The notes under the pieces are model-generated. The model did not search any database and was not told the origin of the DNA. It worked only from the letters and a program-made list of their open reading frames with translations. The translations under genes were made by a program, and so were the position numbers. 64,000 nt of DNA from Cristatella mucedo (Eukaryota > Bryozoa > Phylactolaemata > Cristatellidae). Below are positions 19,025-52,290 of the stretch, piece by piece. Where the stretch lies: positions 7,682,501 through 7,746,500 of the forward strand of contig WPIO01000008.1 of the NCBI GenBank assembly GCA_009760855.2. Direction: 5' to 3'. Position 1 is the stretch's first letter. Every line of letters starts with the position of its first letter.

Positions 19025-19760
19025 ATACCACATCTAAATTGGTCCATGCATTTGTGACATCCCGTCTTGATTTCTGTAACCCACTGCTTGCTGGTCTACC
19101 GGCTGTGCTCTCAGGCGGTTACAGCTGGTGCAAAACTCTGCAGCGACGCTTGTCTGTCGCGAGCACCAAAGTTTCCACATTACACCACTTCTCGCCGACC
19201 TTGACTGGGACACGGTCAAGCGATGCATCGACTTCAAAGTTCTGTCACTCACTTTTAGGTCCCTTCATTCTTTGGCAGCAGCCTACTTATAAGATCTACT
19301 CTTCCCCCTCCCCACCAGGCTAACCATCGTCACACGAGCTTTTCGGAATCTAACTGTAAACCCATACCTCGTACAATTCTCAAATCTTTTGGAGTCCGTG
19401 TCTTTAGTTCGTACGCTCCCAGAGCCTGGAACCCACTCCCGACTTGCGTCACGATATCTCCTTACGCGTTCACATATAAAAAGAAACAAAAAACGCACCT
19501 ATTTAGGACAGCATTTAGCGGGTCCCTGCGATTCTTCCTTGCTGCGCTTATGCGTGCTGGCACTGTGGATGCCGCTACTAATTATACTTGCATGCTGACC
19601 CCGTTCATGTCGCCTCACCCCTAACCATGTTATTCTTGTTGTGTATTGAGCACGCTACCACTAACCATTCAATCGTGCTTCCTTTGCAGCAAATGTAAAG
19701 TGCCTAGAAAGATATTGAGTTCTCCGAGGACGCTATATCAAATGTATTATTATTATCATT
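19025..19760 (+). mobile_element. LINE 3' end, degenerate
   Basis: Reads LVHAFVTSRLDFCNPLLAGLP, then frameshifted LQLVQNSA, PSYLS and FGVRVFSSYAPRAWNPLP equivalents, and the shared 3' UTR with an ATT-rich tail at 19740-19765. Confidence 0.8.
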
Positions 19761-19879
19761 ATCATACAATAATCTCGTTCTTACATAATCATAATCGCGC
19801 TACCGGTTAGTAGGAACTCTGGCTAGTAAATTGCACTGGATCATGCACAGGTAAGCACCAAAAAGCCAAGTCAGGAACA

Positions 19880-20768: not shown

Positions 20769-32482
<11,714 letters not shown>

Positions 32483-33091: not shown

Positions 33092-34374
33092 GTTAAACTA
33101 GCCCCAAAGCACTGCAAGTGAGTCGTCGAAACGGTGCAAAGCTATGCAGACGATAGCTGAGAATGCATATTCAGTGAGAACAATTCCGTGTCTGATCGTG
33201 TATTCTACACACGTAAAGAGCCACATCTGAACAGTAAGAAAGCTGGCAGGCCAAGTATGAAACATACGCAGCAATGTTTTAGTTTTCATAGATCATTAGG
33301 CATGCGGCTCTTTATACTCAAGTCAGGAACCGCTATTTAAACTTCTCGCTCCCTGCAAGCAGCACAATCTACCACGAACCAGGCAAAGTTTCACGTTCGG
33401 AAAACGTTCGCAAAACAGAAATGCTTTCGCATCGACGCATAATTGCCCACACGCCGGCTTCCGTCGGTCACCAGACCCCCACCACGGGAACTTAAACTTT
33501 CCGATTAAGATTATTGACTCGCTATCCCCTTAAGCAACTTTGCAGAACACGAAGGCAGGTAAGAACACGGTGCCAGGGGAAGCTTCGTCGCGGCGAGTTC
33601 GTTCGCCAAAAGTAGGCCGCACGTAGCACGTGTCAAACTCGGTTCGTGACATTTTTTCTTCAGAAAGACAGTCGAGTAACCGCCTCGGAAGCCCGGGCGA
33701 GGCGGAAGGCAGGCTCGCTTGTCTAAGGTAAAATGAATACAAATAAATTGGCGACGATGCAGAGGACAGCTCGGAGGATCGAGTCGCTGGGTGGCTGAGG
33801 CTCGAGACGCCACCTCCGAGTCTGAACTTCGCTGCTGCCATCGCATGACGTCGTCACGTTAAGTCACGTTTCGGGCCTCTTCATCGATCATCCGCCGTCC
33901 GCGCTGTGGATGACGGGGAGAGCTAGCCTTTGGCCGAGGCATCGATGCCAGCTCAAGGGAGAAAGAAAGATCGCGGCCCAGGGTGAAATCGTCGCCGGCG
34001 GACTCGCCATCCGTCCAAACCAAACAGAAGCCAGCTTTCGCGACGTTAAGCGACCAATTGTGGGCGTGAGGGTTCTCCCGATGCGTCATGCGTTCTCGCG
34101 ATGCGTCATGCGCCGCGCCCCCCCCCCCCCGTGCCTGGTTAGCTACCACTGGCAAGTAAGGCCAGCGGCATACGGCCGCTCTCGCGTGGTGTATATGATT
34201 CTGTAATTGGCCGCCGGACGCGTCGATTTTTGCCCGTAGCCGGCTGCTGGGAGCCGACTTTCGAGCCTACCGCCCCCCGTGGCTCGACATACCGCGGAAT
34301 GTGCCTGGAGGTAGCAGGCCGCTCGGTGGTCCTCGAAGTCGCATATGCTGTATGCGTGCCACCTGTGAACGCGT

Positions 34375-34490
34375 GCACCTGTGAACGCGCTACGTTCGTT
34401 GGCACTGTGTCACTTGTCGTTTGATTGTGCTTCCTTTACAGCGAACATAAAGTGCCTGAAAAAGACTAGGTTCTCTGATGGCGCTGTGCA
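34375..34490 (+). mobile_element. LINE 3' UTR fragment
   Basis: Contains gattgtgcttcctttacagc and ggttctctgatggcgctgtg; no RT coding. Confidence 0.55.
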
Positions 34491-34809
34491 TTTTGCACTT
34501 ATTGCTCATGTGTGGGCCTGTACGCTCGCCATACGCTCTCCCCCTCTCTTCATGCCACTTGCTGTGGAGCAGCATACCCGACGGCTGCTACACAGTGTGT
34601 GTACGCTTGCCAGCGTGTCGCCTGCGTACAATACAGCCACCGTGCCACCGTTTCACCCACAACACGTGTGCGGGAGGGGGGTGGGATTAGCCATTCGTTA
34701 TTCTCCATCGTCGAACCACCGCCGCGTGAGCCCCTCACTCACATGAAAGCGATTCGCATACCACGGGGGGGGGGTGAGGGCCGAGGTATTTTTTCCGACT
34801 GCATACGTT

Positions 34810-34837
34810 CACTTCTCGCGGTGCACCGCGAGAAGTG
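34810..34837. repeat. 28-bp perfect palindrome
   Basis: CACTTCTCGCGGTG directly followed by its exact reverse complement, no spacer. Confidence 0.95.
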
Positions 34838-35574
34838 GTGGCCGAAATGAAGTTGGCTCGCTGCGCTTCTTCTGCTTGAGCTCACGACGGCGGATTCTGA
34901 GCGGCGACGGCTGGGCCACTGGTTGCCCCGCTTCGCACCGAGCCTCGCCACGCCTCCCCTACGAGCTTCTTTCGCGGAGCTGAGGCGAGAAAGCATGAAG
35001 AATCTGGTAGTATAGGCTGTACTCAAGTACATACAAGATAATTTCCATACGGAAGACTTAATTGGTGCAGGCAGACGTACAAAAATTAGTGCATCGAGCT
35101 GGCTTTCTAGTTTCTCGAGAAAAAACGCCGTGCCATTTTGGCAGACTAGTTGGCGCCGACCGTTGCCGACGCCAAATGTAGAACGACGTCGACTCGCGAA
35201 GTAAAAAATGTCGTGCAACAAGAACCGAAGTGAAGTTGGGTTAGCACCCAGTAGAAAAATTGGCACGGACCCGAGAAAGAAAAAACAACGTCCTGGCTCG
35301 CGGACGGCCGGCCTATTAGGGCCGCGGTGTGTAACCGGTGGCGCAGCACGAAGTTGGCAAGAAACGACATGCGGAAAGAGCACGGCTTGCCGGAAGTCGG
35401 CAAAGCGACGGAGGAGTGAGGAATGGGATCGCTGTGCACGTCTAGCACGGTCGGCAGGCGGACGAAGTTCCAATGAGTACGACGGCCGCGTCTCTGACGA
35501 ACGGAAGCCTCGCCCGCCAGTCGGCCGCTCGTTCGAGTGAGCGCTGGCTGACGACATCGCCGGGTATCAGCGCC

Positions 35575-35773
35575 CTACGTCATACGGAGGCAGGCGGTCG
35601 ACCCCGGAGAGGAAACGACTTCGATGAAGAACAGTGTCGCCGGGTTAACGAACGGCACGTTCGGCATGTCGGCCGCCGTGTCCATGGGGTTCAGAACGAC
35701 CTGCTTGGTAGTGCCGTCCACGCCGGCCACCGCCCTCGCTTCGTCCACCGCGGCGTCGTTGCGCAGGTACAGC
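35575..35773 (-). CDS. secreted protein exon 5 (stop)
   Basis: Acceptor cgctctgtcgtgcag; phase 2 entry restores an arginine codon. Encodes the third unit LYLRNDAAVDEARAV, then KQVVLNPMD and FVNPATLFFIEVV, ending CLRMT-stop. Confidence 0.72.
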
Positions 35774-37189
35774 CTGCACGACAGAGCGGCACCGGATGGT
35801 GAGAGCGGCAGCTCGCTCTGTGCAGCCTCGAGGCCAGCCGCAGAGCCCCCGAACTGTCCTCCCTGCTAATGCCGCCTCTTCAACTGCCTGCTCGCCCATC
35901 TCTCCGGGCAGACGCCCCGCCTGCTTACCGGAAATAGGGGCCGGCTTGCAAGCTGATCGCGGAGCCTCCGAACGATTGGTTGGTGATGGGCCAGCCGCCG
36001 AGCATGAGCAGCGTGTTGCTGGGCTGCTTGTTCGACGAGTAGTTGCCGTAGGTGTAAGCCTGCAGCGAGGAAACGCGACTTGGTCGGTCGCACAGCGAGC
36101 TGCGCTCGCTGTAGCAGGGGGGCCGAATGCTTTTGACGTCCGGTAAGGAGGCACCGCCTGTCGACTCGCCTTCCGCCAGCCAGCCAGTCAGCTGTGCCAC
36201 AGCCACGGCCGCCGTACCTTCATCACTCCCGTCGAGCCATTGAAGCCGAGCAACAGATGTCGCTTGTCGGCCGTGTTGTTGCTGAGCTTAACTGTGAGAG
36301 CCATCGGGCCGCTGGCCGAGCCAAAGTAGTTGACAACGAAGCGACCTGACAAGGCGACAGCTCTGAGCTGTAGGAGCTGTCGGCCGAAGCAGTGCTTGGA
36401 GCCGACGCGCCAAGCGCTGCTGCGTTGCAGGCAACTGCCCGCCCCGTTGCAGGCAACCGCAAACGAACCGGTGGCTAGGGTGACTTCGGCAGCGGATTAA
36501 CGAGAGCCGGACGGAGCAGCAGTCAGTAATACAGTTTTTGCGAGTGAAAGAGAGCGGAGCGCGAGAGAGCACTCACTCTCCGGGTCGTTGTGGTTGTACG
36601 TCGCCAGCAGAGCGCTCTGGTCGCTATATGGCCTGCTGACGCCCAAGTAGCCGTTGGTCTCCAAAGACTTTATGACGACGACATCGCAAGTAAGGGGCTG
36701 CAACGAAAAGCCAGATCCGTCTATCAGGCCTGCTGAGCGCCCTGGCGGAGGCGTGTGGCATTCTCAGCCGCCGCCGCCGCCTGTTGCTCGACGAGTATAG
36801 CGATAAGCACCACTTTTCTGCACATTCTTCGTCGGCTCGTTTCTGGCTCTTCTCCACTCGTCCACTCTTCCTCCTCATCTTCTTCCTCTTCTGCTCCCTT
36901 TTTCGCCTCCTGCCCCTCATCCGTCTCGTCACGACCGCATCTCTCTAGTACTTCCGTTCTCTCCAGGTGCACTCCTTCCGTTAACCGTCCGCTGGCGAAG
37001 CACCGGCCGTTGGGTGCATGCACGTGGAGGCTGGCAGCGAGCGCCAAGTGTCCTACAGCAGCTAGTGCAGCCACTCACCAGCTTGATCAGCCTCAGCGGG
37101 GCGGCGTTCAGCGCTTCGAGCCAGAGCAGGAGGGCGACGCTGGCCAGCGCCCTCGCCGCGGTCGCGTAGCTCGCACTCAAGTAGTTCAT
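35575..37189 (-). CDS. secreted 229-aa protein, possible beta-trefoil (5 exons)
   Basis: Exons in order: 37189-37079, 36697-36577, 36345-36218, 36059-35929, 35773-35575. Every junction is GT-AG, phases agree (0, 1, 0, 2), and the frame ends at TAG, giving 229 aa. Residues 1-30 form a signal peptide (hydrophobic ASVALLLWLEALNAA). The mature part has four N-glycosylation sequons (NNT, NGS, NYS, NQS) and only two cysteines, near residues 41 and 225. Three similar strand-like motifs, NGYLGV (52), HLLLGF (107) and LYLRND (165), recur about every 56 residues, each followed by a loop and a second strand. That spacing suits a beta-trefoil (the fold of FGF, IL-1 and ricin-type lectins), but I recognise no family. 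Codon third positions are GC-rich as in SCFD2. Confidence 0.7.
35929..36059 (-). CDS. secreted protein exon 4
   Basis: Acceptor tttcctcgctgcag, donor GTAAGC, phase 0 in, phase 2 out. Encodes AYTYGNYSSN and NTLLMLGGWPITNQSF with two sequons. Confidence 0.72.
36218..36345 (-). CDS. secreted protein exon 3
   Basis: Acceptor tcgccttgtcag, donor GTACGG, phase 1 in, phase 0 out. The split serine codon gives NDPESRFVVNYF, a typical trefoil-like turn-strand. Ends in the second unit HLLLGFNGSTGVMK. Confidence 0.72.
36577..36697 (-). CDS. secreted protein exon 2
   Basis: Acceptor tttcgttgcag, donor GTGAGT, phase 0 in, phase 1 out. Encodes PLTCDVVVIKSLETNGYLGV and ALLATYNHNDPE, the first of three repeat-like units. 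Confidence 0.72.
37079..37189 (-). CDS. secreted protein exon 1 (signal peptide)
   Basis: Thirty-seven codons from ATG (context cagaATGaac) to donor GTGAGT. Encodes a short polar N-terminus, a hydrophobic core VALLLWL and a likely cleavage region ALNAA. An acceptor-like ttctacag sits 15 bp upstream of the ATG, so a 5' UTR intron is possible. Confidence 0.72.
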
Positions 37190-37436
37190 TCTGCTGTCGA
37201 GTCTGTAGAAGAGTGAGACAACCATTGTAGCAGCAGCTGCTGCAGCGATGCAGTCCAGCTGCAGCGTCCTCAGGCCGTGGTCCGGCGGTGGTGGCGTACC
37301 TACCTCTGTCGTCGGAACCTGTCCGCTCGGCTGCAGCTCACGTTCAGTCCTGTACGGGGGCGCTGCTGCTCGCTCTTTGCTCGAATTCGAAAAAGTGGCG
37401 CATTTATGGGCGGGCTGCGGGACAAACCAAGACAAG

Positions 37437-37460
37437 CTATTTTTAGGCTCCGCCCCTTCC
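37437..37460 (-). promoter_or_regulatory. possible core promoter of the secreted-protein gene
   Basis: A CTATTTTTAG decamer (palindromic MEF2-type consensus, also TATA-like when read on the minus strand) sits beside a GGGGCGGAG GC-box, about 250 bp upstream of the start codon. Motif presence only. Confidence 0.2.
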
Positions 37461-37802
37461 CTTACCCGGGACTGCTCGGTGGATGACGGCCCTTGGGGAC
37501 GGCCTAGCGGGATTCCCCACTGAGTCAATCGCTATGGCTGCTTGGGCAAGGTGGTGGAAAGGTGTATGGGGTAATGCCGGATTCGAAGCAGTCTCAGATC
37601 CGTGGGCGCTCGGTCTGGTCGGGCGGGTTCGTTGGGCCTCCAATTTGCCGGGTAATCGGCATGTCCGCCAGCTGCCCGGTGGGGGGGAGGAACCGAGGAC
37701 CCCTCAGCACTGTATTCTCTGAGTAATCGATACCTCTATGGGCTGTGAGCCCCGCTGCCATTACTGCCGCACGTCTCGTCTAGAATACACCACCCAGCGC
37801 TA

Positions 37803-37836
37803 CGCCGAGTGTCGCTCAGGTTCGCGACACTCGGCG
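37803..37836. repeat. 13-bp perfect inverted repeat, 8-nt loop
   Basis: CGCCGAGTGTCGC and GCGACACTCGGCG flank tcaggttc. Confidence 0.95.
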
Positions 37837-40800
37837 GCAGAGCAGGCCATTGAGCGGCAAGGAAGGCGCGGCCTAGTGCCACCGCCCTACCCGCTAAGCA
37901 TTTCCGGTCTCGCGACATCTCGCATAGGTCAAAGGAAACCGGCGAGGCGGTTGTAGTAGAATTGCGAAATGAAAAAAGATTAAAAGAACTTGACTCAAAC
38001 ATTTTTCAAATGCGAGCGGGCAGCGCCATTAAACGTCGGGAGTTCGACGTTCGCCGTCTCAACTACCCTGGATAAGTAAGAGTTAGGCTATCCCCACGTT
38101 GGCTGCTGGGCAACCATGACGCTGCTGCGGCCATGTTGCCAGTGGCTGGCGGCGCCACGAATTCGAAAGGGTCTAGCAGGTTTAGTAGCTAGGCACCTGC
38201 AAATAAAAAAAATTGAAAGATTTAGGCTGGACAATTAATTAATTACCATTTGATAAATCTGTATTCTTTGTGATGCAGTGTTAGCTTTTAATGCAGCTTC
38301 TGATTATCAGGTTGGGGGGTAAACCGGGGACGGAAATATCAGAGATAGCGGCGCCGGATGACCCAGCGGTCAGAACGTTGGCCCAATAAATTTTTAATGA
38401 GTAAGATGGACATGGCAGACGCCCATGCAAGATCGTAACGAATGCCGATTCTTGCATAAGGATAGTGTTCTCATCCTAAACCTAGCTACGTCGGTCGATC
38501 TTCGGTGCTCAGCTATCGCGCCCGCACTAAGCTCTCGCGAATTCAGAGCACCAACCGCCGGCGACTGCCGTCAGGCGCTGGGCTATGGCCTTAGTGTGGC
38601 GCAGCGATTGGCTAGTCCCCTTTGCCACGATCCCCTTGGCCTATCTAAGATGCCTGACTAGGTTTTCGGGGGGGGTCGAGGAAGCTGCGATGCTGTTCGG
38701 CGAGGGGGTCCTCGTGAGCCGGCGCCTCGTCGGCGAGCCAGCAGCGCCACCTGGCTCGCCCCGTAGCATCCGGCGGCGGCCCCAATCGAGCCGGCGTAGC
38801 CGTTTCCACGGCAGCCTAGCGGGAGATGTCGCACGAGCCCGCCTGCCGCCAAGATTCGATGCAGCCAGCCGCGTTAGTTCGGCTGCAGCGAGCTATCAGT
38901 ATGCTAACCGAAGCCCTGCCGGTCGCGAACGGCGACCTGGAAGCGCAGAGCGGCTCCTCATCGCGGTTCAGCTCCGATGAGCACCGTCGCGCAGACGATT
39001 GGAAACGGTAGGAGGAATCTCGCTTCACCTGCGTATCACAAATAATCCTACCGCACGCCCGCGTGAGAATATCTGGCCCTGCTCAGCTTAATCGTTTTAT
39101 CGTTACCGTTTTATCTGTCTGGTGAGACACTTCGTGGGCACTCCAATGACAAGAGGGCGTCTGCTCCGTTCAGAGGCCCGGCGCGAACCAACTCCAATAT
39201 CTAAATTAAATGAGTGCAAATATCTAAAATACCCAAGACGATTTGAAATCTAGAGACAATTTTCCACTCAGCTCCGTAATGCTGATTTCGAAGGAACGCT
39301 GGCGAATAGGACGGGCGAACGCTGGCGCATCCGGAGTTGCTGAACCAAGCGAACCAAACGTACTGTTAGCTTAGCCTCGGAGAGGAATCTCGCGACTTCC
39401 TCGCACGCACGCGGTGGTTTCGTAAGAGTTTCTCAGTACAGTGAGAGAGCAACGCGAATTTTGTGGTCAGAAGAGCAAATCCGTAAATCCCTTCGAGTCG
39501 AAGTGCAGCGTAGGCGGCCGGTGAACTCGCCAACCGCCTCCTTGAACTTCAATGGTGCGTCGCTATTCATCGCGATAACTAGCTCGTGGGCGACTGCGGC
39601 TCTCCAATTCTCGTTTCGGGGCGCCGGTACATCGCACGGTAGCTCAGCTCACGCCGCGCCCGAGAACAGGTCGCCCCTACGTCCAGGAGCAGCCACTCGA
39701 CGAGAAACTCATTCGCAAAGCGGGCACAAAGGCCGCCGAGTTTAAAGACTTTTCGCTCTGCTGCTTCTCTCATTCTTTGAAGGCACTGTGCTCACTCGTT
39801 TGGGCTCTTCAATGTTCGCGATGCTCCGAAGATTACCGCTTAAGCAGATGCGTCTGCTTTCCTGTAGGGCACATGTTCCGATCTGCTGTAGGAATTCACC
39901 GATGTGTGCGGAGCTAATGGACTAAGCGGTTGCTGGCCGTGGACCGTAGCTTAGCTGCAGCCCGGGGTACCTTAAGAAGTGACCGGCCGCTCAGCCCCGA
40001 CCTTAGACGTAGCCAGGACTTCGCCAAGGAGTGGGGGCCAGGCCTTGACTTTTCCATGGGCTGCCAATCGAAAAAAAGGCGCAGGCTTGTCCAGGGGGCC
40101 ATAGGTCTGCATCCCCTTCGCAGCACCCTTCGTACAGACCCTTGCCACTCCGCCACCGTTCTCCCCAAGTCTCGCCAGGACGTTGCCGCCGCTTCTTTTC
40201 TGCTTTAAAAGCTGTGCCGGCGGAGGCTGCACACCCTAGAGGGCGCTTCGAACCCTAGGGGGACGTATCTCCTAAGCGGGTCGTCCGTATGGTTGGTATA
40301 CGAAGGCGCTGAACTTTTTATAAACGGGAAATGCAGCACTAGACAGGAAAGTCGAGTCCTAATCGTCCGTCTGAATGTCGACTGGCGGCTTTAGCGCGGT
40401 CTTACGTTTCGCTCTACAACCGTCCGGTTGGTCGACTACCGCACGAGTCGCAACCTTGACGGAGACAGGGGGGCCAATAGCGAACGCACAACCTGGATAG
40501 GATTTGCTCGCTCACGATTGGTGACGGAAGTATTTTGATTGATTGTTTTGCCTTCATAAGCTCGGCAGATCGTGTTTTATTTTAGTGCGGCTAGGCAGTC
40601 GATCTTCAAACGAGCCAGCCTGCAGGGAAACGCCGCCTCCCGGGTGTCTAGCTAGCTTTCAGGTTCGGAATGCTGCCTCGGTAGGACACCCTTTATCCTC
40701 CCACCGAGTAACTCCCCGAGCAGAGCGAGCCGTAGGCTTCTTAGTTACAGAGTAGGAGAGCCTACTTCTTAACCGTAGTCTACTTTCACTTACAGACTGC

Positions 40801-41097
40801 TGGTTACAGAACGAGACACTCTGCTCACGAGGCACCTAGGCTGCGAATCTTTATCTCGCCCTCGTGACGCAACGTCTTATCGCTAGCCGCCGCCCACTCG
40901 GGTTGCCCTGCCCGAGGCCATCTCTCGAACCCGAGCGCTCCTCCGATTCCAAGTAGTTCTCGGCGACGCAGTATTCCGCCGGGGCTACCGAGCGAACGCA
41001 AAAAGGTTGTCTTGCCGGGCGGCAGCAGATGCGTCATGGCCTTGAGGCTCGGCAGCCGAAACGCCCCCCCCCCCCCCGCGGGCATCGGTTTCGCTGC

Positions 41098-41250
41098 CGA
41101 CCGCCACCCGGGTTGCCCGCGGCCATCTCTCGAGTAGGCATTCCCCCTAGGGATGACCACCGTCGGCGGCGCCTCCACGCCGACCGCCACCCGGGTTGCC
41201 CGCGGCCATCTCTCGAGTAGGCATTCCCCCTGGGGATGACCGCCGTCGGC
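41098..41250. repeat. 83-bp direct tandem duplication
   Basis: The unit starting cgaccgccacccgggttgcc at 41098 repeats at 41181 with only a few differences. A diverged relative (cactcgggttgccctgcc...ggccatctctcga) is at about 40897. Confidence 0.85.
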
Positions 41251-42751
41251 CTGTCCTGGAGTCGGACGGTCATTCGAGCTCTTGGCCGTATGGAGAGCCG
41301 TTGGCGTACTTCATGGCCGCTCCTGAAAGCCTGTAACCACCCGCTGCTGTCGAATAGACTTTCTATTTTACGGATACTGACTTGATAGTCGCTGTTGCGT
41401 TCCTGCTACTGACGGCATACCAGCGTGCATTGGTGCAGCACCTACGAGTAGCTAGCCAGTATTCGTCGACCTTCGGGCTGCGACTAGCGCTGTTACGAGC
41501 GCTGCATTTGAGACCTTGCCGCACGCCGCGTTAGTATCTCGGTGACGGCATTTCAACGGATGTCAACTGACCGATACGGGGCCGATGCGGCGACGGTCCG
41601 AAAAGATGCTTCGGCACGAGCCGAAGCGGGGAGACCAGCCGAGAGCTCACCGCGGGACTCGGCTTCAGTCTACGAGCAAGTCAGTCTTCGCAGCCACCTG
41701 CCAAACCAGCGGGGAGAGCGCGGACTAAGGACTCCCAGAGCAGCGAGCGACTGCCCTTCTCGACATCCATCTTCCTAAGCAGCCCCTGCTGTCGAGTCGT
41801 TTAGGCCTCGGACAATGCTCGCAGCTGACGACTCAGCAGGCGAGCGGCTAGTCATTCGTGGGCGGCCATCCGTCTATCAAACTACGCGGTCGAGCGGTTT
41901 CGGAACGGACAATGGGTGTGCGGTGGGAAACGTGGCGTTCAAAGAATTCATAGGCCGCCTGAGGAGTACATGGGCGAGAGGGCGGTATTCCTCTAATTAA
42001 GCCTGGTTTAGACGGCGAGTCTTGCTTCCTACGTACTCGAGCCTTACTCTGGTCTTCCTTTTTGTTGGAGGTTTAGTAGGGCAGTCATGCTCCAAGTCTA
42101 GCCTCCTTCTCGCTCCGCCCACCGAGCATGGGGAAAATTACTTTTGCAATGAGGGAGGAAATGGCCCTCCGAGATGTATGTCCAGGTGAATTAGAGTTGG
42201 CTGCCGCCATTTACATATATTTTTTAAACCAGGGCAGAAGAAGCCGCCTCAAAATCTGATTTATAAACTCCGAGCTTAGAGTGTCCCACAAACGCAGGAA
42301 CCCTTTCGGAAGGTGTTGACGATTTCGCTGGTCAAGCCGTCCGCCAATTCGTTCAAAGTAATGCAGTAGACATGGCCTGAGCGGCGCTTACGATTGGTCA
42401 CTTGCTAAGTCGTGCCTGAATCTTGGCCGAAGAAGTAGAGCCGGGTTCGGCTGCTGAGTCTTCGTCGAGTCTTTCCTAAGTCTTGGACCTGCATTGGTGA
42501 CGTATACACCGAAGATTTGAGTAGGGAAGAAGCAGGTAGTAAGCAAGACTCAACGTCTAAACCGGGCATTTAAGCCGACCGTCTAGAGTGACTGAACTTG
42601 GCCGGCTCATTTTGTTAGCTGAGTGCTTGTTGTGCCGGTTACTCGTCTCTCGGTCTCACTAACGAGCCCGACGGCCTAGAGTCACGCGATCTAGAGGCAG
42701 TCCCACGACCTCTTGACCTCTGGAGAGTTTTGAATAGAGAGCTCAAAGAAA

Positions 42752-43300
42752 AACGATAATAATAATGATAATAATACACTTGATAAAGCGCCCCCGGAGA
42801 GCTCAATCTCTTTCTAGGCGCTTTACATTTGCGGCAAAGGGAAATGCAATTGAATGGTAAGTAATATCATGCTTGATAAACAAACAACATGAATAACACG
42901 GTTAGGGGTGACCTGCACACGGTCAGCATGCAAATGTGGTTAGTGGCAGCATGCACAATGTCAGCACGCATAAGCACATACAAGACGAATCGCAGGGACC
43001 CGCTAAATGCTGTCATACATAGGTTCGTTTTTCATTTCTTTTTAAATGTAGTCAAGTCAGGGGATGTCGTGACGCAAGTCTGGAGTGAGTTCCAGGCTGT
43101 GGGAGCATACGAACTAAATGCACGGTCTCCAGCGGATTTGAGGTTTGTACGAGGTATAGGTAATCTGTTGGATTCCGAAAAGCGGGTGGTACGATGCTTG
43201 GCCTGGTGAGGGAGTAGATCAGATAAGTAGGCTGGAGCCAAAGAATGAAGTGACCTAAAAGTGAGCGACAAAACCTTGAAGTCGGATACAAAAGTGGCTA
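42752..43300 (-). mobile_element. LINE 3' end fragment, minus strand
   Basis: Contains minus-strand SLHSLAPAYLSDLLPHQAKHRT, split across two frames, plus the 3' UTR and an (AAT)n tail. Truncated at the HWLP region. Confidence 0.85.
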
Positions 43301-44118: not shown

Positions 44119-44436
44119 AACATTGATCTTCTTCTTTTATGCTCGTGACCCAAAAAGACCAGGATCACAGATGCCCCTGCTGTGAGATTTCGCTGAAATC
44201 CTAAAACAGGAAGGGCATATCAGAAGAGATTTTGGATTGGGTAAAACTGTCACCAATTTTTACAAGAGCATTTGAAATGCCTGCCGTAAGTCTCACTCAC
44301 AGCCACCCACACCTGTTAGAGGCTGTGCAATTTTTCTGCAGGTTCACGGGTTGACCAGCCATTGTGAAAGCACGTTTATGTGAGCTAAGTGAGTCTGCAT
44401 ATGTAGGTCCTCTCTATCTGTCCATCTATCTGTCTC

Positions 44437-44530
44437 TATATCACTCTCGTTCTCGTTCCCCCCTCTCTCTCTCTCCCTCTCTCTCTCTCTCTCCCTCTCG
44501 TTTTCTCTCCCTCTCTCTCTCTCGCTCACT
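44437..44530. repeat. CT-rich imperfect microsatellite
   Basis: Interrupted (CT)n with CG interruptions. Confidence 0.9.
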
Positions 44531-45189
44531 GTCAATCTCACTCACTCTTACACAGATACTCTCTATCTTTTCCCCTTTCTATCACTCTGAGTTTCCACCA
44601 GGCCATAACATTATGTTACACTGGAGAGTTTACTATAACTTCACTTAAAGTCTAAGCAGCTTTTGTTGGATACTTGGTTGCTGGACAACATTTTCTTGAG
44701 AAGGAAAGGTAGGGAGCACAGCTAAATAAGGAAGTAGGTAGCAATGAAGTAAACAGACTGCTGTAGGGAAGTGCCAGAATCGCCAGCAGAAGAATGATTT
44801 GTGTACACGATGTAGTGCTGAGTACTGCAAATTGCAATGAACATGTATATAAAAAAAATTGTGCTATATGTGTGAACCTGGCGTCAGCATCATGCCTAAG
44901 AGAAAAACCTTTGGGTTTCTAACTATATTTTTACCCCAGAAGCAAATTAATCGTGGATCATTGGGTATTTTCTGTTTATTTCAGGCATACGCGATTAGGA
45001 AAACGCACTTAGATACCCAAAAGCAACAAATAAATTTAAACCTGTTGCCTTGTACTAGGCCAATACTACTCAATGAAGCCAGCGAGGTATGGACGAGCCA
45101 CGCTGCAGCATTTCGTGGGTCGGAATAATATAATAATAATAATATAACTCATTTGTATAGCGCCCTAGGAGAACTTAATCTCTATCCAG

Positions 45190-45300
45190 GTACTTCACGT
45201 ATGCCACGGGGCTTGAGCCCACGACCTTGGTCGTCAAATAATTTCATTCGCCTTCACCTTGTTAGGGGTTAGCACTTCAACCGCTGGGCCAAACCAGCGC
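45190..45300 (-). repeat. tRNA-headed repeat, family B
   Basis: Minus strand reads cgctggtttggcccagcggt, then ccaaggtcgtgggctcaagc. Same order as the copy at 24.8 kb. A fragment of LINE tail (45125-45190, minus) adjoins it. Confidence 0.5.
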
Positions 45301-45631
45301 CGACTGATTTAAAAATAGCTGTGATTCGACTGGGAGCCTTGTTTCTCTAGAAGCGATGCCCGCTGTGGGACATCTTTTTAATCAATAATCAATATCTGCA
45401 GCACATTAGCAGCAAGATTTAAGTTTCGTTTTCTTTTTTGAAAAACAGCCAAACACCTCGTTAGATGGGGGTGCTAGTTTGCTGGATGTTTGGGGGTCTC
45501 CTGTCACCAGTGCTCTCGCGTGTGCTCTATAGTAGCGCTGCTATCGCCTCCTACTTGGTTTGGGGCTGATATTTACAGTACTTGAATGCACAATGTCGCC
45601 AAGCCAGACCGCTCAATCGTTATGTTAGTTA

Positions 45632-45819
45632 CAGTGGTCCTCTACCTTCCTAATGCTGCGACCTTTTATTACAGTTCCCCGTGTTGTGGTGACCCCCAAA
45701 CATAAAATTATTGTGTGCAAAATTTGGAAATGCGTGTTTCCCAATGGTCTTAGGGAACCCCTGTGAAAGGATCGTTCGACCCCCCAAAGGGGTCGCGACC
45801 AAAAGGTTGAGAACCGCTG
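45632..45819. mobile_element. SPIN-like hAT miniature element, non-autonomous
   Basis: 188 bp with hAT-type terminal inverted repeats: it starts CAGTGGTCCTCTACCTT and ends AAGGTTGAGAACCGCTG (14 of 17 positions pair). The interior carries gttgtggtgacccccaaaca, taaaattatt, atggtcttaggg, cccctgtgaaaggatcgttc and aaaggggtcgcgacc. These match, in order, the remembered consensus of the SPIN (Space Invader) hAT family, with the middle deleted. No coding capacity. The flanking 8-mers, gttagtta and ggttacta, are not a clean target-site duplication. No internal promoter seen. Confidence 0.82.
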
Positions 45820-46395
45820 GGTTACTATCATTTACATATGTAAGGTGCCTAGACTGAGATTAAGTTCACCGATGGCGCTATATGGATACATTATTATAGC
45901 CACATAGGCTGCTAGCGGGAGTGAATTCAGGCACACCGAGCCGACCGTCCATGCCCACTGGTGAAACAATCCGTATCCTTTGCATAGAGAAGCATATTCT
46001 ATAGCTACGGAGTGGGTACAGGCTCCCAAAGCCGGCCGTGGCGTACATCAGCTCTTGTGCCGTTCAAAGCCTAAAGGATACACTCAGCTCAGCTGTAAAG
46101 GCAACAATTCTCTTTCTAATATATGGCTTTGGCATTTATGCTACCTCGGCCGTGGATTATCACATAACCGGCTCGTAGCCATCGTAATTTAGGAGCAGCG
46201 AATAATGACAGTCAGTCATGATCTGGCCGATTTAGCATGCTACCGTTTCAGTCAACACTTGTATGACTGCCTATTTTAATTAGTTACTGCTTTTAGTATT
46301 TCGCTTTCACGCGGACTTTCACTCGTTCGATTTCTTAGTGAGTGCAGTAACGCTGAAATCCCTCGTGCTGCTGAGTCTTAGCCTTAGGTTTGCCT

Positions 46396-47389: not shown

Positions 47390-47580
47390 CTCTTGGGAAA
47401 GACGTCGTGCCGGACTCTGTGCACGTTACCCCTAACCATGTTATTCATGTTGCTTATCAAGCATGATACCACTCACCATTCATTCGTGTTTCCTTTGCAG
47501 CAAATGTAAAGAACCTAGAAAGAGATTGAGTTCTCTGATAGCGCTTTATCAAGTGTTTAATTATTAGTATCATTACTATT
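47390..47580 (+). mobile_element. LINE 3' UTR fragment
   Basis: Shared 3' UTR (cctaaccatgttattcatgt, cctttgcagcaaatgtaaag) about 360 bp before the large LINE copy, on the same strand. Confidence 0.65.
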
Positions 47581-47936
47581 AACTCTCGGTAACCAGCGAG
47601 GACCAGCAGATGTTCTATTCCGATTGAAAATCAGCTTCCGTGCGGCCAAATGAACTCGTTTTGGCCTCAAGCTGCAGCAGCGTGGTTCGTGCGATTTTTT
47701 CAAGTTTAAGCTCGTAAATACTCTTGATTTGCCTGAGCAGCAGAGATGTCTGCTTACGCTAATTTTCAATAGCAGAGAGCTTATGCAGGTATCTCTCTGA
47801 CGTATGTACTTCCGTGCGCAAACGTTCGCCCTGCGAACCGTCCGGCAACGTCGGCTCAAATAGTAAGCAGACTATCCGTATCTGAGCTTGACGCCAGTTA
47901 TCCGCGAGTAGTGACGATAAAACTAACTAACTAGTT

Positions 47937-48875
47937 ATGGGCAAACCCAATGTGATTCATAAATTGGAAAGGCTTACGCTCAAAATTGGCTCTGCCAGCA
48001 TATCTCCAGTTGAATCAGCTCGAAATCTAGGTTTCATATTCCAAAACTACCTCTCGTTAGACGACCATATCAGCTTCACAGTCAAATCTGCCTATTTTCA
48101 GCTTCATAACATTGCTAAAATTTGGGCTTGCTTAGATAAAGATACCACATCTAAGTTGGTCCATGCATTCGTGACATCCCGTCTCGACTTCTGCAACTCA
48201 CTGCTTACTGGCCTACTGGCATGTGCGATCAGGCGATTGCAGCTGGTGCAAAACTCCGCAGCTAGGCTTGTCTGTCGTGAGCGTCGCAGTTGCCACATTA
48301 CTCCACTTCTCGCCGACCTGCACTGGCTACCAGTCAAGCAACGGATTGACTTCAAGGTTTTTTCGCTCACTTTAAGGTCACTTCATTTTTTGGCTCCAGC
48401 CTATCTCTCAGATACACTTCCCCATCAGGCCAAGCATCGTACCACCCGCTTTTCGGAATCCAACAGTCTACAAATACCCCGTACAAACCTCAAATCCTTC
48501 GGAGACCGTGCATTTAGTTCGTATGCTCCCAAAGCCTGGGCCTCCCTCCCGACCTGCGTCAGAACATCCCCTGACCTGACCACACTTAAAAAGAATTTAA
48601 AAACACACTTATTTAGGACAGCATTTAGTGGGTCCCTGTGATTCGTCCTTGATGTGCTTATGCGTGCTGACACTGTGCATGCTGCCACTAACCACATTTA
48701 CATGCTGACCCTGGGCATGTCACCCCTAACCATGTTATTTATTTTGTTTGTTTGTCAAGCATGATTTTACTCACCATTCAATTGCATTTCCATTTGCGGC
48801 AAATGTAAAGCGCCTAGAGAGAGAGATTGAGTTCTCTGAGGGCACTTTATCAAGTGCATTACTATTATGCATTAG
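47937..48875 (+). mobile_element. L2/CR1-type LINE, 3' end with open reverse-transcriptase C-terminus
   Basis: A 234-codon uninterrupted frame (47937-48641) covers the end of the reverse-transcriptase ORF: LQLVQNSAARLVCRE, HITPLLADLHWLPVKQRIDF, LAPAYLSDTL, SFGDRAFSSYAPKAW, and FKKNLKTHLFRTAFSG by family comparison. It ends in TGA, then a 3' UTR with aaatgtaaagcgcctag...gattgagttctctgag and an (ATT)n tail. It is 5'-truncated: the catalytic core is missing. The intact frame suggests the youngest copy here. Confidence 0.88.
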
Positions 48876-48879
48876 TATT

Positions 48880-51115
48880 AGTGAAATGAATTGTGTTTAA
48901 TTTTAGCTCATTATACATTTATGCGTTGAGCTAGCTTCTCTTGCACTTTGCGATATCTTTAAAGAATTAATTTAATAAATCTAGGGACTTAATTGAGGCT
49001 AACCCACAGACGCCAAGGGATGGGGCGTTCTTACGTTGACCAGGCGGAGCGGAAGCGGCTGGATGGGGCGTGTCTTTAGTTTCAGCGCCGGATGTAGCAG
49101 CGGTTTTCAATACGACTGCAGCTCACTCTGAACAGACCTCTGCCGCGAGTAGCAAATGCCCAGCTGTTCTCAAATGAAATATTATGCAGTTTAGGCTATC
49201 TTTTGGATACAGGACCTCATGAGTGATTCCCGACACAGCGGCAGCAGACGATGCACACGACCACCACCAGATGTAGCCCACTGTTCTTAAAAAGGCAGTG
49301 CTGTGTAAGCTGATATGCGAAGCCATCGCAGATGGGCCCCACCTGATAGGCTATTAATTGAATCCGGCTCAAAACATATACACAACAAAAATGTCTGTTA
49401 TCAATTAAATTGCACTTTTAATTGGCAATTTGAGTCGTCACATATAGCCTTGACCACGTTGCAGTAGGGTGCATCGTGCGGCAGCTGGATCCCTCACCGA
49501 TGAGCCTTTTTCTACCATCTAGTTCTGACGTTTAGAGCGAACAACAGCGGCGGATACCGTATGGACGTCTCCGGAGAGGACTGTAATTCGGACGAGTTGG
49601 CTGTCGTCAGACGGTCGTTGGGTTAGCGCGAACGGGTCTGCAGCCTAACCATGCGTGCGGGTACCGGACGCTGCTCGGATGCCTACCGTTACCAATGTGA
49701 TAGAGGGGTCTCTGCTTCGCTGCTTTGCAATCATTTATGGCTTGATTGCTGGCTGAGCTCTTTAAAAATAAACTCTTTCGGAGTCTGACGTCAATGAGGA
49801 GAGTCGTAGTGACGGTAAACGTTGAGCGGAAGCTCTCCCGAACAGCCAACGGCTTCGCAGCGAGATGTCATGCCCGCGCCCCTACTGCTCTCAGCTGCCG
49901 GTGAGCTGGCGTTGGCATCTTTCTGCCATTCGCATTGCGTGTGTTGGCGAAAGTCTTGTAGTGAGTTCGCATATGTCATCTAGAACCTTCGCTCATGGAG
50001 CTCCCTCTAGAAAAGAGAAAGTGTATTGCTGAGAAGGGCAGACAATTGATCGAAAGCAGATAATAGGAAGGTCGACACAGCTGGTGGACCTAACGCCCGC
50101 GGGTTTAAGTTTATTAGTTCGACAACGAGGGTGTCAGGTTGACGATGTTAGCGGTCTTGCTAGACAGTTTCTTACTAGATCACGAGCTCAGTGAGAGCCG
50201 CCAAATTCTGATTTACAGTGGGTCTTCTCTCTTAAAAGACTAGTGATTTCTCGACACGCCATGTCTTTCCAATAATCAGATCAGGCTGACGGCTGCTTCT
50301 TTGCCAAACTTGAAAGCTCCGAAAATTATTGATACATAAATGGACCAAATTATCAGCCTTGTGACTTCTTGCCCCCTCCGAATCAGCCTTAGAAACGGAC
50401 ATTATCCAGGATGTCTGCATGTAGAACTGCATAGTTTTCACCTGTCATACAGTGACTATACAGCATCTCGAGCTTTGGCCAATCCTGGCAAACCAAGCCA
50501 CTAGGTTCTTTTCTGTGCTTAATACGTGTTCTGCCGTGCATATCAGTCAAACCTTGCAGTTTCGACCGTATCAAAATCGCCAAATACATAAGGAAGTCTT
50601 TTGTATTGGGCTTCACAATAAAGATCACCTCCATTCAGATTCTTAACAACTCGCTGCAAGAGAAGTGATAAAAAATTGTTAATTACAACCAAGATATCGT
50701 GCGTACTCAAGAATGCAAATGCACGTAAGATGATACTCACGGCTGTTGGTTAGTAGAAACCCTCAGCTAGTAACATGCACTCAATTATGCTAGGTTAAGC
50801 AAAGCTCACAAGAAAATGAATTAACTCACTGGCAAGTTATACAAGCACGTTTCTCTGACCCTTAGTAATTTTGAAGTGCTTAGTTTCGTTCTATCGATGA
50901 CTTACTTTTACAGACTAATCTCTGAACCCTACTTGCGATCTAAACTGCAGCCTCCCAACCAGACAAACGTGTACTTTATGTTCATTACTGGTATTGATAA
51001 CTGGACAATCGGTACTTTGAAATGCACATTGGGCATTTAAAGAGAAGAAACATTAGAAAGGCACAAATAACTTGAGTAAGTTAACTGCTCCTGGGTATCA
51101 GCCCCAATTTAAAGT
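48880..51115. other. unassigned intergenic sequence
   Basis: No repeat family or convincing exon. A minus-strand frame near 49.8-50.0 kb is open for 62 codons but lacks motifs. Confidence 0.4.
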
Positions 51116-51632: not shown

Positions 51633-52290
51633 TTAATAATAATAATAATAATAGTAATAATAATAATAATGCACTTGATAAAGCGCCCTCAGAGAACTCA
51701 ATCTCTTTCTAGGCGCTTTACATTTGCGGCAAAGGGAAATACAATTGAATGGTGAGTAATATCATGCTTGATAAACAAACAACATGAATAACATGGTTAG
51801 GGGTGACATGCACACGGTCAGCATGCAAATGTGGTTAGTGGCAGTGTGCACAGTGTCAGCATGCATAAGCACGCGAAGGACGAATACCCACAGATACCCA
51901 TTAAATGCTGTCCTAAATAGGTGTTTTTAAGTTCATTTTAAATGTGGTCAAGTCAGGGGATGTTCTGGCGAAAGTCGGATGGAGTTCTAGGCTTTGGGTG
52001 CATATGAACTAAATGCACGGTCTCCAGCGGATTTGAGGTTTGTACGAGGTAATGGTAAACTGTTGGATTCCGAAAAGCAGGTGGTACGATGCTTGGCCTG
52101 GTGGGGGAGTAGATCTAAGAGATAGGCTGGAGCCAAAGAATGAAGTGACTTAAAAGTGAGCGACAAAACTTTGAAGTCGATCCGTTGCTTGAGTGGTAGC
52201 CAGTGCAGGTCAGCGAGAAGTGGTGTGATGTGGCAACTGCAGCGCTCACGACAGACAAGCCTAGCTGCTGAGTTTTGCACCAGCTGCGTT
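51633..52290 (-). mobile_element. LINE 3' end fragment, minus strand
   Basis: Minus-strand frame includes VQNSAARLVCRERCSCHITPL and ends in the shared 3' UTR and an (AAT)n tail at 51633-51670. One frameshift-free stretch of about 95 codons remains. Nearly the same sequence as the 42.8-43.3 kb copy. Confidence 0.85.

What the first reader, a model, noticed from the sequence alone, without database searches (positions are those of the whole stretch)
45632..45819. SPIN-like hAT element in an invertebrate-looking genome
The terminal repeats and at least five internal blocks agree in order with the SPIN (Space Invader) consensus as I remember it. SPIN is known for horizontal transfer among tetrapods and has been reported in a few invertebrates. 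The copy is short, with a central deletion, and its terminal repeats still pair well. It would add a host lineage, or date a transfer, if the host is not already on the list.
Basis: partly seen in the sequence, partly recalled or inferred. Interest (0 to 1): 0.85.

Follow-up and report, generated by a model that had tools for sequence, protein, structure and literature searches.

The report
SPIN-like jumping gene in invertebrate
A short, dead copy of a cut-and-paste jumping gene of the SPIN kind, best known from land vertebrates, sits in an invertebrate's chromosomes together with hundreds of sister copies, which points to DNA passing between very distant animals; SPIN-like elements in a few invertebrates were already known, so the news is probably one more host.

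Summary
Confirmed. Window 45632-45819 is a complete non-autonomous hAT element (MITE): 188 bp, 17-bp terminal inverted repeats matching 14/17. The assembly (572 Mb, 688 contigs) holds 482 matches to its subfamily's deletion junction and 668 to the family's right end, controls 0. Of 40 sister copies, 23 have 8-bp target duplications of at least 7/8 (nTCTAGAn). The host is an invertebrate: its COX1 needs the invertebrate mitochondrial code, its DNA is not strongly CpG-depleted, and the element lies among resident repeats. Contamination or an unrelated hAT is unlikely; horizontal transfer is the best explanation. The window copy lacks a clear target duplication and has a segmental twin 167 kb away. 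SPIN-like elements are already reported in Rhodnius and Biomphalaria, so this is a probable new host of a known kind.

The parts
45632..45819 (+). Complete non-autonomous hAT element (MITE) of the SPIN/URR1 type, 187/188-bp internal-deletion subfamily; orientation is that of the 'CAGTGG' end first
45632..45648 (+). Left terminal inverted repeat (14/17 to the right one)
45803..45819 (-). Right terminal inverted repeat
45705..45736 (+). Stretch spanning the subfamily's internal-deletion junction; its consensus occurs 482 times (2 or fewer mismatches) in the assembly, control 0
   Evidence: alignment of long and short consensus
45774..45800 (+). Subterminal hairpin and palindrome of the right end. 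The family's version has 668 matches (2 or fewer mismatches) in the assembly, control 0; the window copy itself has one extra C here
45624..45631 (+). Candidate left target-site duplicate (weak: 4/8 to the right one, 5/8 with one base of slack; not beyond chance)
   Evidence: the segmental twin L009 has 2/8
45820..45827 (+). Candidate right target-site duplicate (weak)
45835..45897 (+). Resident LINE/SINE 3' tail starting 15 bp after the element: ties the copy to the host genome
   Evidence: E 3.5e-9 in the window; the same tail lies in 11 of 104 other fetched loci
44239..45929 (.). Segment shared with a second copy 167 kb away on the same contig (L002/L009): element plus flanks were duplicated together; the left end is limited by the stretch held

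Best explanation
The feature is a fossil copy of a non-autonomous hAT transposon (MITE) of the SPIN/URR1 type in the nuclear genome of an invertebrate, probably a lophotrochozoan with a mollusc-like mitochondrial gene block. Shown here: defined ends, TIRs, 8-bp target duplications with a TA centre on many sister copies, hundreds of copies, copies of several sizes that differ by internal deletion, a near-star relation among the sampled copies, and residence in host DNA. Inferred: a SPIN-type transposase bound the TIRs and subterminal repeats in trans and moved the element by cut and paste; the family entered this lineage by horizontal transfer, directly or through third species, amplified in a burst and died. 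The window copy inserted, mutated, and was then carried with its flanks in a local segmental duplication.
For: TIRs and exact ends. Copies: 41 matches, 40 of them at 85-100% identity and one at 77%, from 40 candidates scored out of 1996 of the first look; 482 with the junction; 668 with the right end. TSDs of at least 7/8 in 23 of 40 copies found with the window copy and in 18 of 27 copies with both ends, out of 30 fetched with the recalled consensus; consensus nTCTAGAn, T4 and A5 in 78 of 82 half-sites each. Recalled consensus versus genome long consensus 219/222; that consensus came from copies picked with the recalled query, but the short consensus, from copies picked with the window copy, agrees at 178/186. 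Host: COX1 under table 5 with 8 AGR codons read as Ser and TGA as Trp; CpG o/e 0.83 in the window and 0.75 in 111,976 flank bases, some loci overlapping; the resident tail in 8 loci of this family and 3 others. Near-star: 38 copies, mean pairwise difference 0.098 against 0.107 for twice the distance to consensus.
Against: The vertebrate SPIN/URR1 sequence is recalled, not a database record. No SPIN-type transposase was found: the 63 strongest of 138 PF05699 matches (150 of 766 candidates scored) look like another, young hAT family whose held part (3' side, 20 loci) shows no such TIR, and of 75 weaker matches I could fetch 5, none with SPIN-like ends. The window copy and its twin lack a clear TSD, as do others: 17 of 40 copies are below 7/8. 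Host unnamed, so no comparison with host gene divergence.
Confidence: 0.87

Rival explanations
1. It is a resident, vertically inherited hAT MITE family of this invertebrate lineage that only resembles SPIN in its TIRs and palindromes.
For: hAT TIRs with CAGNGGTTCTCAACC-like ends recur in many hAT-Charlie families (recalled). No database comparison was possible.
Against: The agreement covers non-coding interior as well: 219 of 222 aligned positions with the recalled consensus, including about 60 bp absent from the window copy and typed before the genome was searchable. Non-coding DNA would not stay so alike over the protostome-vertebrate split.
Confidence: 0.07
2. Contamination: vertebrate DNA in the assembly or a chimeric contig.
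For: Vertebrate DNA is a frequent contaminant, and SPIN is best known from vertebrates.
Against: Hundreds of copies spread over many contigs, one of 24.8 Mb; the window copy and 8 fetched loci of the family carry the resident LINE/SINE tail nearby; flanks are not CpG-depleted as in vertebrates.
Confidence: 0.02
3. The host is itself a vertebrate, so a SPIN copy is expected.
For: LINEs of this kind, THAP genes and microsatellites also occur in fishes (recalled).
Against: COX1 on a 21,008-bp mitochondrial contig holds 8 AGR codons in frame, which are stops in the vertebrate code; ND1-ND6-CYTB-ND4L-ND4-ND5 lie on one strand (genes named by eye), a lophotrochozoan block (recalled).
Confidence: 0.02
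4. The 188-bp copy reached its place only by segmental duplication or a non-transposase route, since it lacks a TSD.
For: TSD 4/8, reached by 12% of random places; the twin L009 shares the flanks.
Against: Exact ends and the family's TSD pattern suggest that the ancestral insertion was transposition; 11 of its 18 differences from the consensus are shared with the twin, so the copy was already old when duplicated.
Confidence: 0.1

Closest known systems
SPIN (Space Invaders) non-autonomous elements of tetrapods, with URR1/URR1B of rodents and URR1_Xt of Xenopus (hAT-Charlie)
   Same: TIRs, order of blocks, 8-bp TSD with TA centre (nTCTAGAn for SPIN is recalled), near-identical consensus to the form that I recalled (219/222). 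The labels SPIN_Ml, SPIN_Og, SPIN_NA_6_Et and URR1_Xt as hAT-Charlie were seen in PMC3017861 (passage); URR1B as hAT-Charlie in PMC10458454 (passage).
   Different: Invertebrate host; a 187/188-bp deletion subfamily, besides copies of about 320 and 608-642 bp. Whether the breakpoints equal those of vertebrate MITEs could not be tested.
SPIN elements of Rhodnius prolixus (Gilbert et al. 2010, cited in PMC11614815)
   Same: SPIN in an invertebrate, attributed to horizontal transfer from tetrapods (passages).
   Different: Rhodnius is a blood-feeding bug; here the mitochondrial gene block is mollusc-like.
SPIN-like hAT of the snail Biomphalaria glabrata (PMC5440852)
   Same: A hAT with about 1,000 copies and 'significant identity' to SPIN in a mollusc (passage).
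   Different: Probably a different genome: about 46% GC in the flanks here, while B. glabrata is AT-rich and larger (recalled); no sequence of that element was available to compare.
OC1 / hAT1 / ET transposons of the same horizontal-transfer wave
   Same: Elements shared between vertebrates and invertebrates (PMC3621081, passages; PMC11614815, passages).
   Different: Not compared by sequence; no reference held.

Membership tests
hAT superfamily (non-autonomous element) | Short TIRs (10-25 bp; PMC3942097, passage) | tested here: met
   17-bp TIRs, 14/17 in the window copy; only 1 of 63,600 segments of this size in the window reaches that
hAT superfamily (non-autonomous element) | 8-bp target-site duplication | tested here: met
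   Met by the family: 23 of 40 and 18 of 27 copies at 7/8 or 8/8. Not met by the window copy itself (4/8)
hAT superfamily (non-autonomous element) | Mobilised by a hAT transposase | tested here: inconclusive
   hAT dimerisation domains are plentiful (138 matches), but the best belong to a family without these TIRs on the side held; 5 of 75 weaker loci fetched, no SPIN-like ends
SPIN / URR1 (hAT-Charlie) | TIR and subterminal sequence | tested here: met
   Against a consensus recalled by me, not a database record:
SPIN / URR1 (hAT-Charlie) | High identity over the whole non-coding element | tested here: met
   219/222 aligned positions to the recalled consensus for the long-copy consensus (copies selected with that query); 178/186 for the short consensus (copies selected without it). 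The reference is recalled.
SPIN / URR1 (hAT-Charlie) | TSD preference nTCTAGAn (recalled) / Buster-type TA centre (recalled) | tested here: met
   T at position 4 and A at position 5 in 78 of 82 half-sites each, counted on the 41 copies with TSDs of at least 7/8
SPIN / URR1 (hAT-Charlie) | Best match in Dfam/Repbase | not testable with these tools
   No repeat library held; three primary SPIN papers not held
SPIN / URR1 (hAT-Charlie) | SPIN transposase or its fossils in the same genome | tested here: inconclusive
   Copies of 608-642 bp and one near 918 bp carry more interior, but no coding link to a SPIN transposase was found
Horizontal transfer | Element identity far above that of host genes | tested here: inconclusive
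   Element side tested against a recalled reference; host genes and sister species could not be compared

The most novel reading that the evidence does not exclude
This lophotrochozoan, perhaps a mollusc not yet on any SPIN list, was a reservoir or stepping stone in the same wave that seeded SPIN across tetrapods, and what crossed was (also) the short non-autonomous element itself: the near-identity runs through the interior of the about 320-bp form, as if one master copy had been shared, with local deletion classes such as the 188-bp form arising after arrival.
Probability: 0.2. Interest if true: 0.7.

Novelty: new member of a known kind. Interest (0 to 1): 0.47.

Why it matters
SPIN is a textbook case of transposons jumping between animal lineages, and few invertebrate hosts are known to me. 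A lophotrochozoan-like genome with hundreds of copies, TSDs, and a consensus practically equal to the recalled vertebrate type gives another node for the route (parasites, their intermediate hosts, water) and a chance to date a transfer once the host and its relatives are named. It also shows that the internal deletion of the window copy defines an amplified subfamily.

Tried and rejected
Looking for outside relatives of the element: exact patterns in viral contigs and genome contigs, and blastn in plasmids and phages, gave 0 matches; these are collections of viruses, bacteria and archaea, so this says little. Rfam: nothing at gathering scores in the window, nothing up to E 5 in the element and its near flanks, and 3 hits far below gathering scores in one of 4 other loci. 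Paper text searched for six recalled sequence pieces: 0 papers.

Empty-site test inside a LINE tail: I joined the two flanks to see whether the element interrupts a LINE copy. The right flank is a LINE/SINE tail (E 3.9e-9 in the joined piece), the left is not (best 0.8 bits, on the other strand), so an insertion into a LINE is not shown.

Host naming: Pfam on 30 frames of the window gave one hit over its cut-off, a THAP domain; PDB searches with 4 frames gave THAP relatives for that frame and otherwise nothing convincing. 18S rRNA was sought in the genome without a usable answer or without any answer. LINE protein in viral contigs: none of 28 stretches encodes a relative. Searches translated the wrong strand of COX1; searches are the right ones (tables 5 and 9; the right strand was not run under table 2).

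The young hAT family as the driver: rejected for now, since the part held of its 20 loci shows no SPIN-like end (exact TIR in 7 loci; blastn in 20); its 5' ends lie outside the stretches held.

Full report
What is there. Window 45632-45819 (188 bp) starts and ends exactly on a pair of 17-bp inverted repeats that match at 14 of 17 places. No other of the 63,600 segments of 188 bp in the window reaches that. Single-stranded, it folds at z = -3.8, and 0 of 200 shuffles fold as well. It is the only copy in the 64-kb window.

What it resembles. A recalled sequence is a lead, so I looked for a blind check. The recalled form contains about 60 interior bases (roughly 82-140) that the window copy does not have. 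When the genome became searchable, that form gave 2284 first-look candidates; 40 were scored, giving 71 matching pieces at 75-97% identity, most of the left-hand pieces running through the missing interior at 87-93%. The majority consensus of 17 long copies (those of 250-345 bp among 27 with both ends, of 30 fetched loci) agrees with the blind 225 bases at 219 of 222 aligned positions. These copies were picked with the recalled query, which favours agreement. The short copies (40 plus the window copy) were picked with the window copy instead; their consensus agrees at 178 of 186. A longer recalled form agreed at 298 of 308, but it was typed after the consensus had been printed and does not count as blind.

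It is a family. The window lies on contig C676 of a 572-Mb assembly in 688 contigs. The 188-bp query gave 1996 first-look candidates, of which 40 were scored, and 41 matches: the copy itself, 39 others at 85-91%, and one at 77%. The subfamily's junction (32 bases, 2 or fewer mismatches) occurs 482 times and its reversed control 0 times. The right end (26 bases, 2 or fewer mismatches) occurs 668 times, control 0. Diverged copies are missed by both. Besides the 187/188-bp class there are many copies near 320 bp, three of 608-642 bp and one near 918 bp that share extra interior sequence, and single copies or a few of other sizes (212, 279, 350, 419-498 bp), some of which may be insertions rather than classes. 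So the window copy's central deletion is a subfamily trait.

It moved as hAT elements do. Of the 40 copies found with the window copy, 8 have perfect 8-bp target duplications, 15 have 7 of 8, and 17 have fewer; of 27 copies with both ends found with the recalled query (3 of the 30 loci gave no pair), 18 have at least 7 of 8. On those 41 copies the duplications read nTCTAGAn, with T and A at the centre in 78 of 82 half-sites each. The short copies are near-star-like: mean pairwise difference 0.098 against 0.107 for twice the distance to consensus, 38 copies, the twin L009 and the 77% copy left out. Mean K2P to consensus is 0.059 for the 41 short copies and 0.089 for the 17 long ones; the window copy stands at 0.097. 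Only the best-scoring copies were sampled, so the family's mean divergence is probably larger. Substitutions are 2.6 times denser at CpG places (0.123 against 0.047 per site, 40 copies), which suggests methylation in this host.

The window copy in particular. Its own target duplication is weak: 4 of 8, which random places reach in 12% of trials. Its closest relative (L009, 91%) lies 167 kb away on the same contig and shares its flanks: 614 bp, element included, at 91%, and 1.8 kb at 88% in the longer stretch; the left flank differs at 3.1% of 784 aligned positions. Both copies therefore come from one insertion and a later segmental duplication; 11 of the window copy's 18 differences from consensus are shared with the twin. 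Fifteen bases to its right begins a resident LINE/SINE tail, which also lies in 11 of 104 other fetched loci, 8 of them loci of this family. I could not show that the element interrupts a LINE copy: the left flank does not match.

The host. COX1 lies on a 21,008-bp contig (C688); its frame holds 11 TGA. Read with the invertebrate code it is open, with 8 AGR codons read as Ser, which are stops in the vertebrate code. A Lys that I recall as conserved (in SGKEEVFG) is AAA, which would be Asn in the echinoderm/flatworm code. By eye, ND1-ND6-CYTB-ND4L-ND4-ND5 stand in a row on one strand, with COX3-ATP6-COX1-ND3 on the same strand and ND2 and COX2 on the other. I recall that block as the ancestral order of molluscs and close lophotrochozoans; no gene tree was made. 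CpG o/e is 0.83 in the window and 0.75 in 111,976 flank bases of fetched loci, some overlapping, with 46% GC. A THAP domain in the window (E 3.5e-14) fits an animal.

Mechanism. Shown: ends, TIRs, TSDs, copy number, a deletion subfamily. Inferred: a SPIN-type hAT transposase acted in trans on TIRs and subterminal repeats. No such transposase was found. PF05699 gave 138 matches from 150 scored of 766 candidates. The 63 strongest look like one different, young family: 20 fetched loci are 98.3-99.9% alike over about 2.0-2.2 kb, and the part held (the 3' side) shows no SPIN-like end.

Known context. SPIN in Rhodnius, attributed to tetrapod donors, was seen in passages of PMC11614815; a SPIN-like hAT with about 1,000 copies in the snail Biomphalaria glabrata in a passage of PMC5440852; SPIN and URR1 as hAT-Charlie labels in PMC3017861 and PMC10458454 (passages). 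Three primary SPIN papers are not held. In the listings of my searches, papers naming Space Invaders were those on Rhodnius and Biomphalaria (in one search only 12 of 4,973 papers were listed, one of them, Biomphalaria, with the term). So the kind is known; the host is probably new, and that is unproven.

Verdict. Horizontal transfer is the best explanation of near-identity in non-coding DNA across such a distance, resting on a recalled vertebrate reference that a single Dfam search would replace.

Noticed in passing
G000 loci L048-L067 (e.g. L053:22-1755): A young hAT family with transposase frames up to about 640 aa: 20 loci 98.3-99.9% identical over about 2.0-2.2 kb, 3' end without a SPIN-like TIR. 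A very recent burst, possibly another transfer.
   Followed up: partly
window 45130-45310, 24780-24930, 19025-19765, 42756-43284, 47418-48880, 51649-52287 and others: LINE fragments whose 3' tail (ending in TAA repeats) is shared by what looks like a tRNA-headed SINE; 20 tail matches above the inclusion threshold in the window, 7 of them the copies that built the model.
   Followed up: partly
window 27202-27618 (+): THAP domain frame (Pfam E 3.5e-14), directly after a LINE tail match (27223-27339); part of a gene or of a transposon.
   Followed up: partly
G000 contig C688 (L101, L102): 21-kb mitochondrial contig with a repeated non-coding block: the same frame pair twice in L102 and once inverted in L101; ND2 and COX2 on the other strand.
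   Followed up: no
window 34000-42000: GC-rich stretch (55-60%) with CpG o/e about 1.0-1.1 in 4-kb bins over 32-44 kb, unlike the rest of the window (0.60-0.87); perhaps unmethylated gene bodies or promoters.
   Followed up: no
L073, L079, L080, L074: Longer SPIN-like copies (608-642 bp, about 918 bp) with extra, more diverged interior: perhaps older, less deleted forms.
   Followed up: partly
G000 C166:4375626-4376390, C83, C549, C299: Five further COX1-like stretches outside the mitochondrial contig, perhaps nuclear copies of mitochondrial DNA.
   Followed up: no
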